Positions 11,597 to 13,757 of a DNA stretch of 48,423 nt are shown here, in pieces (the first letter of the stretch is position 1; every line of letters begins with the position of its first letter). Below the pieces are notes generated by a model, which was not told where the DNA came from, searched no databases, and was given only the letters and a program-made list of their open reading frames with translations. Source of the stretch: an uncultured Alphaproteobacteria bacterium. Its GTDB lineage: Bacteria; Pseudomonadota; Alphaproteobacteria; HIMB59. The position numbers and the translations under genes were made by a program. The stretch covers positions 1 to 48,423 of the forward strand of contig CABYRQ010000009.1 in assembly GCA_902521485.1 (NCBI GenBank). The letters are read 5' to 3'.

Positions 11597-11653
11597 TTAA
11601 AAACATAACATGAGTGGCAGAAGAATATATCAACTAAAAATATAAAATTACGA

Positions 11654-11681
11654 TTGATTTAAAAATAACGTAATATATACA
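11654..11681 (+). promoter_or_regulatory. duplicated tRNA-Ser promoter upstream of tRNA fragment
   Basis: TTGATT, 16-bp spacer, TATACA. It matches the promoter of the intact tRNA at 13619–13646 in boxes and spacing, and both share the 17-mer GTAATATATACATTCTA (11670–11686 and 13635–13651). If active, it would transcribe a tRNA-half-like RNA. Confidence 0.55.
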
Positions 11682-11701
11682 TTCTAGACGTTTATGACAT
11701 C

Positions 11702-11741
11702 GGAAGGATGGCTGAGCGGTTGAAAGCACCGGTCTTGAAAA
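11702..11741 (+). pseudogene. tRNA-Ser(TGA) 5'-half remnant
   Basis: Forty bases identical to the first 40 of the intact tRNA-Ser at 13668 except one C/T difference in the D-arm (ctgagCggtt versus ctgagTggtt). Similarity stops immediately after the anticodon loop (cttgaaa plus one base), so the variable arm, T-arm and acceptor 3' strand are missing. The breakpoint at the anticodon loop is the classic crossover point for tRNA-targeting tyrosine recombinases, though no recombinase gene is seen here. Confidence 0.85.
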
Positions 11742-11845
11742 TCTTCTACAATTAAATATATCAACAAATATTATTGATAAATTTGAAGTTTTTATGTTTG
11801 TTCTCTAATCATAAACATCTGTTTTATACCTATAATGTCACAAAA

Positions 11846-11862
11846 ATGGTTCTGAGAACCAT
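11846..11862. repeat. 17-bp palindrome with GGTTCT/AGAACC half-sites (left)
   Basis: ATGGTTCTGAGAACCAT is a perfect palindrome with 8-bp arms around a central G. The same ATGGTTCT word recurs twice near the right end of the insertion (13567–13574 and 13578–13585). An inverted AGAACC lies at 13530–13535. Half-sites at both ends of a tRNA-flanked segment look like recombinase arm sites or an operator family. Confidence 0.5.
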
Positions 11863-11941
11863 AAAATACTTAGTATCAAAAAAAATAATATTTCAATGTT
11901 TTTAAAATTCCTTGATTACGAGAATAGGAATATGAATTTTT

Positions 11942-12346
11942 TCAATTTTTAATTTTGTGTAACTTGTATGAAATAAATACACTTATTAGAGCTAAATAAA
12001 TTGAATATAAAGGCAAATCAAAGCCAGAGTTCAATTTTAAGCTCGAATTAATGTAATGAAATGTAAGAGCTACATAAACGAGGCTCATTAAAATATTAAA
12101 AACTAGAATCGGTGTTCTAAAAATAATTTTATTTTTGATTAACAAGTAGGCAGAAAGAAGAAAAGCTATTGGACTATAAAGAACTGCAAAAGCAAATAAA
12201 TTAGATATAAGTTGATAAACATCAGGGCTACTAGTTAAAAAACTCCCCACTCTAAATCTGACGTAATCAATACTCAAAAATGCCCAAGCAGCAAATAAAC
12301 CAAAAACTGTATGAATTACTGCTAGAGGTATTTTTATTTTTTTCAA
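11942..12346 (-). CDS. four-helix membrane protein, insertion cargo
   Basis: A 134-residue hydrophobic protein with about four membrane helices (roughly 7–27, 42–68, 75–97, 108–128) and a basic C-terminus. No family recognised. Its stop is at 11942, and its ATG lies directly against the stop of the coiled-coil gene upstream (zero-base gap), so the two are co-transcribed. It lies between the two tRNA-Ser copies and is therefore probably accessory. Confidence 0.6.
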   Translation of the reverse strand: MKKIKIPLAVIHTVFGLFAAWAFLSIDYVRFRVGSFLTSSPDVYQLISNLFAFAVLYSPIAFLLSAYLLIKNKIIFRTPILVFNILMSLVYVALTFHYINSSLKLNSGFDLPLYSIYLALISVFISYKLHKIKN

Positions 12347-12559
12347 TTATTTATCTAGTTTGCTTTTAATTTCTTCCAAATCTTTTTCTATACCGCCTAA
12401 TCTAGCATGAATTGCATCTATTTTTTGTTTTTTCTCAATAGATGAGTGTTCATATTTTTCCCACAAATAATTTATAAAGTAACATACAATACCCACACCA
12501 ATTAAGATTAAGATGCCAAGCAAAATTTCAAAAGATATGTCCAAATAATTATCTTTCAT
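12347..12559 (-). CDS. single-pass membrane protein with coiled coil, insertion cargo
   Basis: Seventy residues from the ATG at 12559. A longer reading from 12586 adds nine residues, but an AAAGGATT ribosome-binding site precedes 12559. It has one transmembrane helix (about 8–31) followed by a charged heptad-like region (38–70, ending GIEKDLEEIKSKLDK). The architecture recalls PspB-type regulators, but I see no sequence basis for that name. It sits between the secreted protein gene (16-bp gap) and the four-helix protein. Confidence 0.6.
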   Translation of the reverse strand: MKDNYLDISFEILLGILILIGVGIVCYFINYLWEKYEHSSIEKKQKIDAIHARLGGIEKDLEEIKSKLDK

Positions 12560-12575
12560 ATTTTTTAATCCTTTT

Positions 12576-13514
12576 TCATTTTGCAACTAGATTTTTGGAA
12601 ATATATTCATAAATTTTAACTTCTACTTCATCAAACTTATCATTTAATTCAACGCCGTATTTCTCAATCAGCCTATCTGTAAATAAAAAGATTTTCTCTT
12701 TTTGTTCTATCTTCAAACTATTTAAATGTTGTAATTGTAGATTGAATATAACTACATCATCGTCTAATTCTTCCTCATTAATTTGCACTGGCTGACCACT
12801 TTCATCTTTTTTATCCCAATTCAAATAATAAGTATTTCCATTTGTTTTATAAACACCATGCCCAAAAAAATTCATATCACTTGTATTGTTCATTTTGGCA
12901 AAGTGTGTTGTTGTCTCTAGAGGCTGCATATTATTTGCTCTATCAAGTTTAGTGTCACTTTCATAATAGAATGTATTGGGAATGAATTCTCCGTTTTCAT
13001 CAGCTAAATAAGCCCAATAACTTGAGAGAACAAAATCGTTATCAATATCATTTATTTGTTTTATTTCTATTGGTGTTGTTTCACTAATTTTGTCTTCCCA
13101 ATATTCTCTAATCCTTGTTAACTCTAATTCATAATTATGTGTGGTCTCTAATCCATGTTTTTTTCCATCAAGAAATTCTTTTAACCATATGTTAGAGTTT
13201 TTCAGAATACCAAATTGCATCCCATTATTGATTTCATCTTTGTATTCTGAAAAAATTATGGAGGATCTGTCCTCAGGAATTTGAATAATTATGTCATCTT
13301 TAATAGAACCATCATCATTATATTCCCAATAGTAATGCCAATTACTTTGTTTATTAATGCAATGTGCAAAACCATTAAACTGTCCTATTCCAAGAATGTC
13401 TTGTCCTAAGCACTTCAAGCTTTCATCTTCCGTTTTCAATAACTCTGGATATAAGTTTAGTGGGATTAGTAAAAACAATGATAAAAATATTTTCATTATA
13501 TAAAATTTTATCAT
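12576..13514 (-). CDS. secreted MORN-like protein, insertion cargo
   Basis: A 312-residue protein with an N-terminal signal peptide; a second ATG at 13496 (MKIFLSLFLL) gives a cleaner signal and may be the true start. The body has degenerate MORN/YwqK-like stretches: WEYNDDGSIKDD, LKEFLDGKKHGLETTHNYE and GHGVYKTNGNTYYLNW. The C-terminal 60 residues are helical and charged. Two Cys (about 35 and 52) could form a disulfide. MORN-like repeats often bind membranes or act as surface scaffolds, but the role here is unknown. First gene of the three-gene cargo unit. Confidence 0.55.
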   Translation of the reverse strand: MIKFYIMKIFLSLFLLIPLNLYPELLKTEDESLKCLGQDILGIGQFNGFAHCINKQSNWHYYWEYNDDGSIKDDIIIQIPEDRSSIIFSEYKDEINNGMQFGILKNSNIWLKEFLDGKKHGLETTHNYELELTRIREYWEDKISETTPIEIKQINDIDNDFVLSSYWAYLADENGEFIPNTFYYESDTKLDRANNMQPLETTTHFAKMNNTSDMNFFGHGVYKTNGNTYYLNWDKKDESGQPVQINEEELDDDVVIFNLQLQHLNSLKIEQKEKIFLFTDRLIEKYGVELNDKFDEVEVKIYEYISKNLVAK

Positions 13515-13519
13515 AGCAT

Positions 13520-13551
13520 AGCGGTAGTTAGAACCGGCACAATAAACCGCT
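13520..13551. repeat. inverted repeat upstream of cargo operon
   Basis: AGCGGT (13520–13525) and ACCGCT (13546–13551) flank a 20-nt interior that holds an AGAACC half-site. It lies 6 bases upstream of the cargo gene start, where a repressor could act on the minus-strand promoter. Confidence 0.3.
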
Positions 13552-13566
13552 CATATTTTTATAAAA

Positions 13567-13585
13567 ATGGTTCTGAAATGGTTCT
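13567..13585. repeat. tandem ATGGTTCT repeats (right end of insertion)
   Basis: ATGGTTCT occurs at 13567–13574 and again at 13578–13585, spaced 11 bp (about one helical turn). The word equals one arm of the left-end palindrome at 11846–11862. Confidence 0.5.
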
Positions 13586-13618
13586 TAAAATTATCTTAAT
13601 TTCACTCTAAAAAAATAA

Positions 13619-13646
13619 TTGCTTTAAAAGTATTGTAATATATACA
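13619..13646 (+). promoter_or_regulatory. promoter of tRNA-Ser
   Basis: TTGCTT, 16-bp spacer, TATACA, 21 bases before the tRNA 5' end. The same arrangement is duplicated upstream of the tRNA fragment at 11702, which supports its being functional. Confidence 0.6.
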
Positions 13647-13667
13647 TTCTACACACTTTGAAATCTT

Positions 13668-13757
13668 GGAAGGATGGCTGAGTGGTTGAAAGCACCGGTC
13701 TTGAAAACCGGCAAAGGGGCAACTCTTTCCTGGGTTCGAATCCCAGTCCTTCCGCCA
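13668..13757 (+). tRNA. tRNA-Ser (anticodon TGA)
   Basis: A 90-nt class II tRNA. The acceptor stem GGAAGGA pairs with TCCTTCC (13747–13753), then discriminator G and an encoded CCA. Anticodon stem CCGGT/ACCGG encloses loop CTTGAAA with anticodon TGA at 13702–13704. A long variable arm follows, and the T-arm CTGGGTTCGAATCCCAG is complete. It reads UCA-type serine codons. A T-rich tract downstream (about 13792–13808) may end the transcript. Confidence 0.97.

What the first reader, a model, noticed from the sequence alone, without database searches (positions are those of the whole stretch)
11654..13757. 2-kb segment bounded by a tRNA-Ser 5'-half duplication that includes the promoter
The promoter and first 40 bases of tRNA-Ser(TGA) are repeated 1966 bp upstream of the intact tRNA, and the copy breaks exactly after the anticodon loop. 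Between them are three orphan genes on the opposite strand. The polarity is unusual: most tRNA-targeting elements leave a 3' remnant and rebuild the 3' end, whereas here a 5' half with its promoter is left and the intact tRNA is on the far side. That fits an element that replaces the 5' half, or a decayed tRNA-carrying element. No recombinase is present, so it may be a mobilised-in-trans cargo cassette.
Basis: partly seen in the sequence, partly recalled or inferred. Interest (0 to 1): 0.62.

Follow-up and report, generated by a model that had tools for sequence, protein, structure and literature searches.

The report
Integrase-less cassette in a tRNA-Ser gene
A 2-kb mobile cassette sits in the anticodon loop of an essential tRNA gene and rebuilds the gene's front half and promoter; it carries no integration enzyme, and similar enzyme-less cassettes with different cargo occur at the same tRNA in dozens of SAR11 ocean bacteria, which suggests cassettes that borrow an enzyme from elsewhere.

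Summary
In 21 of 51 congeners the same locus holds one tRNA-Ser(TGA) and no cargo, with identical spacing (105 bp) to TauE. The window's fragment (11702-11741) keeps the ancestral host promoter (102/105 identical to an empty site); the intact tRNA has a foreign, element-borne promoter (34/105). So a 1,966-bp element recombined in the 7-nt anticodon loop and replaced promoter plus 5' half. Congeners G038 and G012 carry other cargo at the same breakpoint. The element has no recombinase, but both arms hold short repeats (TGGTTCT) placed like integrase arm-binding sites. A GTDB scan found the same architecture in about 42 Pelagibacteraceae (SAR11) stretches: integrase-less, 0.25-3.7 kb, cargo antisense to the tRNA, arm words matching between the two ends of one element but differing between elements (0 of 100,000 permutations). 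Integrase-bearing elements with the same polarity occur at other tRNAs; an integrase-bearing tRNA-Gly element shares two cargo genes (74%) with this cassette. Best reading: a non-autonomous, site-specific integrative cassette mobilised by an integrase in trans. Helper not found; mobility inferred; cargo function unknown.

The parts
11643..11701 (+). Ancestral host promoter/leader of tRNA-Ser, stranded with the displaced 5' half (candidate -35 TTGATT 11654-11659, -10 TATACA 11676-11681)
   Evidence: 102 of 105 upstream bases identical to empty site of G028; same sequence before the single tRNA-Ser in most congeners; -35/-10 read by eye
11702..11741 (+). Displaced host 5' half of tRNA-Ser(TGA) (left junction, attL-like); crossover region = anticodon loop CTTGAAA 11734-11740
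11846..11862 (.). Left-arm repeat ATGGTTCTGAGAACCAT (one word and its inverted copy), about 107 bp from the crossover
11942..12346 (-). Cargo C, 134 aa, multi-span membrane-like (by eye); 74% identical to a protein of the integrase-bearing tRNA-Gly element of G003
   Evidence: no Pfam hit
12347..12586 (-). Cargo B, 79 aa, hydrophobic segment plus coiled-coil-like tail (by eye)
   Evidence: no Pfam hit above cut-off
12576..13514 (-). Cargo A, 312 aa, putative secreted protein (signal-like N terminus by eye); 74% identical to a 397-aa protein of the integrase-bearing tRNA-Gly element of G003
   Evidence: no Pfam, PADLOC or PHROG hit
13565..13585 (+). Right-arm repeat AAATGGTTCTG|AAATGGTTCT (11-bp period), about 83-103 bp before the tRNA; doublet found elsewhere in the genus only at the same place in G004
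13608..13667 (+). Element-borne promoter that now drives the intact tRNA-Ser (candidate -35 TTGCTT 13619-13624, -10 TATACA 13641-13646)
   Evidence: 34/105 identity to empty site; similar to promoters before the intact copies of G004 and G012; -35/-10 read by eye
13668..13757 (+). Intact chimeric tRNA-Ser(TGA): element 5' half (13668-13706) + host 3' half; right junction (attR-like)
11741..13706 (+). The integrated element, 1,966 bp, between the two copies of the anticodon-loop crossover

Best explanation
The segment is a 1,966-bp site-specifically integrated element without its own recombinase. In its circular form it carries an attP made of its own tRNA-Ser promoter and tRNA 5' half, ending in the anticodon loop CTTGAAA, flanked by arm sites (TGGTTCT words). 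Recombination with the host tRNA-Ser(TGA) in the 7-nt anticodon loop left the host promoter and 5' half stranded on the TauE side and joined the element's promoter and 5' half to the host 3' half, so the essential tRNA stays intact but under an element promoter. Shown by sequence: empty sites, promoter swap, exact breakpoint, other cargo at the same breakpoint, matching arm words, no recombinase. Inferred: a tyrosine integrase with an arm-binding N-terminal domain, supplied in trans by a temperate phage or larger element, recognises the arm words and moves the cassette, as an IS transposase moves MITEs. The cargo is probably expressed leftwards from the right arm; a protective role is a guess from the defence-like cargo of related cassettes.
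For: Empty sites with conserved 105-bp and ~64-bp spacing to TauE and the downstream gene in 21 congeners. Fragment upstream 102/105 identical to the empty site, intact-copy upstream 34/105; downstream of the loop, intact 111/150 and fragment 44/150. Same-breakpoint elements: G038, McrBC-like genes; G012, HTH-like plus endonuclease-like genes; G004, right end only. Arm words shared by left and right arms in G000 (14 nt; 11 of 5,000 shuffles reach it) and G012 (22 nt). SAR11: 46 stretches in the GTDB scan, 29 complete intervals of 251-3,682 bp, no integrase inside; own-pair arm match 17.3 nt vs 8.0 cross-pair, 0 of 100,000 permutations; 52 of 55 cargo ORFs antisense to the tRNA. Nearly all SAR11 carriers encode only one PF00589 protein, a core Xer-like gene. 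Integrase-bearing 5'-type elements have pairs of repeats in both arms. A phage type in three contigs has an attP of upstream sequence plus tRNA-Ser 5' half beside a tyrosine recombinase. Cargo A and C are shared with an integrase-bearing element in G003.
Against: No helper integrase with matching arm words or tRNA-Ser(TGA) specificity was found in the genus, SAR11 carriers, IMG/VR or INPHARED. No circular form or movement was observed. The left-arm words of G000 are one direct and one inverted copy, not the tandem pair seen on the right, so the site may be decaying. The arm-site role is by analogy only. Cassettes could also spread with flanking DNA by homologous recombination. G000 is 78% complete, so an integrase elsewhere in it could be missing.
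Confidence: 0.68

Rival explanations
1. A dead remnant: an ordinary integrase-bearing 5'-type element inserted, then lost its integrase by deletion and is now immobile (a CIME-like relic).
For: Integrase-bearing elements with the same polarity exist in the genus, and an integrase-bearing element holds two of the same cargo genes; the left-arm repeat is imperfect.
Against: All three ORFs are open and the right-arm doublet is intact and matched in G004; dozens of integrase-less SAR11 elements with intact, mutually matched arms and varied cargo are hard to explain as independent decay.
Confidence: 0.22
2. Cassettes inserted long ago and now spread mainly by homologous recombination through the flanking chromosome or conserved arms, with no integrase needed today.
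For: Arms of ~145 and ~120 bp are conserved among SAR11 cassettes; a TauE gene 96-98% identical to the window's lies next to the empty tRNA-Ser in many relatives.
Against: Precise junctions at the anticodon loop in separate lineages, and tandem arrays (L125, L169) with each unit bounded by its own tRNA half, point to repeated site-specific integration.
Confidence: 0.2
3. The host's own Xer-like recombinase moves the cassettes (an Xer-exploiting element).
For: In SAR11 carriers one Xer-like protein of ~325 aa is usually the only PF00589 protein, and it lies about 15-32 kb from the cassette locus where both are on one contig.
Against: It aligns to XerD from residue 20 and so lacks room for an arm-binding domain; it is a core gene found in 75 of 99 sampled SAR11 genomes; one enzyme would not explain a dozen different arm words.
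Confidence: 0.05
4. Simple duplication of the tRNA-Ser 5' region followed by decay, with unrelated genes between.
For: Only half of the copy remains.
Against: Promoter swap relative to empty sites, exact break at the anticodon loop in several lineages, no relative with two intact copies.
Confidence: 0.02

Closest known systems
tRNA-targeted genomic islands mapped by Islander (PMC4383910)
   Same: Regenerated tRNA at one end, displaced fragment at the other; Islander's configuration filter accepts a 5' fragment upstream
   Different: Islander requires an integrase gene, so this class would be missed; islands described there carry their own integrase
CIMEs, cis-mobilizable elements (PMC5704250)
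   Same: att sites retained without integration genes; tandem accretion
   Different: CIMEs are described as decay products of ICEs/IMEs moved in cis; here there is no conjugative relic seen and there is a recurrent 0.25-3.7 kb format with matched arms
MITEs and CALINs as 'hitchers' (PMC11389934)
   Same: Non-autonomous units that depend on a recombinase encoded elsewhere
   Different: Depend on IS transposases or integron integrases; here the signature is a tyrosine-integrase-type attP (core plus arm repeats) in a tRNA gene
Tycheposons
   Same: Marine streamlined bacteria, tRNA-associated cargo elements (as summarised in PMC10872708)
   Different: There described as 4-200 kb with a tyrosine recombinase; here 2 kb with none. 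The primary paper could not be read here
5'-type integrase-bearing elements in the same lineages (G031 tRNA-Ala, G037 tRNA-Met, SAR11 tRNA-Gly, tRNA-Met and tRNA-Ser(GGA))
   Same: 5' half stranded, 5' half restored by the element, repeats in both arms
   Different: They encode an integrase of about 314-327 aa; different tRNA targets and arm words

Membership tests
tRNA-targeted tyrosine-recombinase island | Intact tRNA at one end and tRNA fragment at the other in correct configuration | tested here: met
tRNA-targeted tyrosine-recombinase island | Empty sites in relatives | tested here: met
   21 congeners
tRNA-targeted tyrosine-recombinase island | Integrase gene on board | tested here: not met
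   no PF00589 match on contig C9 in the own genome and no such ORF in the insert
tRNA-targeted tyrosine-recombinase island | attP with core and flanking arm-type sites | tested here: inconclusive
   repeats in both arms; binding not testable
Tycheposon | Tyrosine recombinase and 4-200 kb size (as summarised in PMC10872708) | tested here: not met
   1.97 kb, no recombinase
CIME | attL and attR retained, integration and transfer genes lost | tested here: met
   att-like junctions present, no integration or transfer genes seen
CIME | Derived from an ICE/IME and moved in cis after accretion | not testable with these tools
   no conjugative relic seen; tandem units exist in SAR11
Phage satellite (PICI, PLE, VEIME) | Packaging, capsid-interference or replication genes | tested here: not met
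   no Pfam family above its cut-off for the three window cargo proteins; cargo A has no PADLOC or PHROG match
Integron cassette / CALIN | attC sites with an integron integrase platform | tested here: inconclusive
   boundaries are tRNA halves with arm repeats; attC models were not run
IS / MITE | Terminal inverted repeats and short target duplication | tested here: not met
   the junction duplication is a 40-nt tRNA half; no inverted repeat pair joins the two ends

The most novel reading that the evidence does not exclude
SAR11 and related streamlined marine alphaproteobacteria host a modular family of integrase-less cassettes in the anticodon loop of tRNA-Ser(TGA). Each carries its own tRNA promoter and 5' half and is addressed by a private arm word, repeated at both ends, to a cognate helper integrase that arrives transiently (for example with a phage), so defence-like cargo can be exchanged one cassette at a time at a fixed locus.
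Probability: 0.5. Interest if true: 0.85.

Novelty: new variant of a known kind. Interest (0 to 1): 0.7.

Why it matters
SAR11 is among the most abundant bacterial groups in the ocean and is often pictured as poor in mobile elements. A recurrent, minimal, integrase-less cassette format at one essential tRNA would explain how streamlined genomes swap genes, some resembling anti-phage defence, without paying for a recombinase. It would also be the tyrosine-integrase counterpart of MITEs and CALINs. Island finders that demand an integrase gene would miss it, so its extent can be measured at once by searching for stranded tRNA 5' halves. The matched arm words make a testable prediction of helper specificity.

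Tried and rejected
Looked for a helper in IMG/VR with the tRNA-Ser 5' half, with fragments having a non-A after the loop (two contigs, not pursued), with SAR11 left and right ends (none) and with arm words (only chance matches L195, L196, L197, judged by context). INPHARED listed ordinary phage tRNA genes at the top. The DNA search of 197 SAR11 genomes with the left arm scored only 4 candidates per genome, so its low count (4 genomes with arm matches) is not a prevalence estimate. Considered the SAR11 Xer-like protein as helper and rejected it for lack of an arm-binding domain. Considered that Charybdis elements (PMC12324425) might be the same thing; they are 4.6-kb elements linked to Poseidoniales archaea. 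G015 has arm-like repeats upstream of its tRNA-Ser but no 5'-half fragment, so it is not counted as an element. The primary tycheposon paper did not appear in the library search and Williams 2002 was not held.

Full report
THE OBSERVATION. The window holds one tRNA, tRNA-Ser(TGA) at 13668-13757. Its first 40 bases recur at 11702-11741 (98%), and the 47 bases further upstream recur at 81%, 1,966 bp away. Between them lie three minus-strand ORFs with no Pfam family above cut-off. Everything in the finding's description checks out except that the genes are not fully orphan (below).

EMPTY SITES. The window lies in G000 (contig C9), a 1.19-Mb, 78.5%-complete genome with 51 held congeners. In 21 congeners a single tRNA-Ser lies about 105 bp from TauE, the spacing between TauE and the fragment in the window, and in most of these about 64 bp from the 13822 gene, the spacing on the intact side (G041 has an extra gene on that side). 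A pattern search found two copies of the 5' half only in G000, G012 and G038. G003, which carries homologues of the cargo elsewhere, has an empty tRNA-Ser site.

WHICH HALF CAME FROM WHERE. Over 105 bp upstream, the window's fragment matches the empty site of G028 at 102 positions; the intact copy matches at 34. Downstream of the anticodon loop the reverse holds (intact 111/150, fragment 44/150). The host therefore lost its promoter and 5' half to the far side, and the functional tRNA is now element 5' half plus host 3' half under an element promoter. The break follows CTTGAAA, the 7-nt anticodon loop; the next base is A, C and G in G000, G038 and G012, so the crossover lies within or at the edge of the loop.

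OTHER CARGO AT THE SAME BREAKPOINT. G038, split over two contigs, has a McrB-like protein (MrcB_N and AAA_5 domains occur once each among the scanned proteins, which include it) and a McrC-like neighbour read by eye. G012 has a 2-kb element with an HTH-like 95-aa protein (by eye) and a 387-aa endonuclease-like protein. G004's contig begins inside an element with the same right end and a cargo protein sharing only the N-terminal segment MKIFLSLFLLIPL.

ARM SITES. In G000 the right arm reads AAATGGTTCTG AAATGGTTCT (11-bp period) and the left arm ATGGTTCTGAGAACCAT. TGGTTCT occurs 4 times forward in 48 kb, three of them here. The right-arm doublet occurs in the 52 genomes only here and at the same place in G004. 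The longest left/right match is 14 nt; 11 of 5,000 dinucleotide shuffles reach that. G012 shares a 22-nt match, GTGGCACAG repeats in both arms. In G038 the longest match fell outside the repeats, so for that element the word (TTCCGGTA-like) is by eye only.

A WIDER FAMILY. A scan of GTDB genomes for tRNA-Ser 5' halves not followed by A gave 46 stretches, about 42 of them Pelagibacteraceae. The pattern samples exact 5' halves only. There are 29 intervals from a fragment to the next tRNA copy, 251-3,682 bp long (one, L146, is from OCS116); L125 and L169 are tandem arrays. No ORF inside resembles a recombinase (tblastn with ten integrases; the translations; the 25 most-matched of 46 Pfam families). 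The ~145-bp left arm and ~120-bp right arm are conserved, and each contains two 11-to-12-bp-spaced copies of a word that is the same at both ends of an element but differs between elements (CTTGTACCAA, CTTGAAGTAA, CTAGAGACAA, CTATTACGAA and others). For 27 elements the own-pair match averages 17.3 nt against 8.0 for cross pairs; none of 100,000 permutations reaches the observed sum. A few elements are near-identical pairs (L130/L135, L139/L164), so effective numbers are somewhat smaller. One interval, L163, is 251 bp, has arms only and no gene. Of 55 cargo ORFs, 52 are antisense to the tRNA, as in the window. Cargo includes caspase-like, trypsin-like, NB-ARC, HNH and MORN proteins, a glycosyltransferase and others, several of which match PADLOC defence models. 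Those matches are family resemblance, not tested function.

IS AN INTEGRASE PRESENT IN CARRIERS? Of 22 SAR11 carriers first searched, 20 had a PF00589 protein, 19 of them only one; G063 had a second, at tRNA-Gly. A further 20 genomes (one counted before) gave at most one. This protein, ~325 aa, is a core SAR11 gene (75 of 99 sampled genomes have a PF00589 match, nearly all of this size), aligns to XerD from residue 20, and is an unlikely reader of arm words. Carriers are mostly incomplete single-cell genomes, so absence is not proof.

AUTONOMOUS RELATIVES. 5'-restoring elements with an integrase of about 314-327 aa sit at tRNA-Ala (G031) and tRNA-Met (G037) in the genus, and at tRNA-Gly (L171), tRNA-Met (L190) and tRNA-Ser(GGA) (L191) in SAR11. 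Their arms also hold pairs of repeats by eye. Most of these integrases have a weak Int_N match that starts about 55-80 residues in, leaving room for an N-terminal arm-binding domain. G003's tRNA-Gly element has an integrase and proteins 74% identical to the window's cargo A and C, so cargo passes between integrase-bearing and integrase-less elements at different tRNAs. Three viral contigs of one phage type hold a tRNA-Ser(TGA) 5' half with upstream sequence between a repressor-like gene and a 425-aa tyrosine recombinase (the PF00589 score, 26.6, is just below the 27.1 cut-off). That is a natural example of the attP type proposed here, in another host.

MECHANISM. Steps shown by sequence: integration in the anticodon loop, replacement of promoter plus 5' half, lack of a recombinase, matched arms. 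Steps inferred: tyrosine-integrase catalysis, arm words as integrase-binding sites, supply of the integrase in trans, continued mobility. I put site-specific integration of a 5'-replacing element at about 0.93 and present trans-mobility at about 0.65. The cargo's role is unknown; a guess is envelope-related protection, from cargo A's signal-like N terminus, cargo C's membrane character and the company kept by related cassettes.

NOVELTY. Known pieces: tRNA islands including upstream 5' fragments (PMC4383910), CIMEs (PMC5704250), MITEs and CALINs as hitchers (PMC11389934), arm-type sites around tRNA cores in phage attP (PMC10865867). I found no description of integrase-less 5'-restoring tRNA-Ser cassettes in SAR11 in the searches made, but the library is partial and the tycheposon paper was not held. 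I therefore call it a new variant of a known kind.

Noticed in passing
L105:7344-13563 (G003) and L106:2115-8278 (G051): 6.1-kb tRNA-Gly(GCC) elements with an integrase have an intact tRNA-Gly at both ends, so their attP may carry a complete tRNA gene; G003 also has a second 1.2-kb interval ending in a 3' half.
   Followed up: partly
L107, L118, L122 (tRNA-Arg TCT); L113, L114 (tRNA-Asp): Classical 3'-restoring elements with 370-488 aa integrases coexist with 5'-restoring ones in the same genus.
   Followed up: partly
L163:7304-7555: A 251-bp SAR11 interval consists of cassette arms only, with one word pair and no gene, MITE-like.
   Followed up: partly
L125, L169, and L127+L144 (one contig): Tandem or multiple tRNA-Ser 5' halves in one SAR11 genome, suggesting repeated insertion at the same site.
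   Followed up: partly
L174:2842-3795 (minus): Core SAR11 Xer-like recombinase lies about 15-32 kb from the tRNA-Ser cassette locus in carriers where both are on one contig.
   Followed up: partly
L111:7042-7111 (G050): A tRNA-Met derivative near an integrase has a CTT anticodon and an altered 5' end, read by ARAGORN as tRNA-Lys.
   Followed up: no
L048:9013-9876 (G041): An extra gene, resembling a phytanoyl-CoA dioxygenase by eye, is inserted downstream of an otherwise empty tRNA-Ser.
   Followed up: no
L125, L148: Caspase-like SAR11 cargo proteins share the N-terminal segment and the C-terminal domain but differ in the middle, hinting at modular diversification.
   Followed up: no
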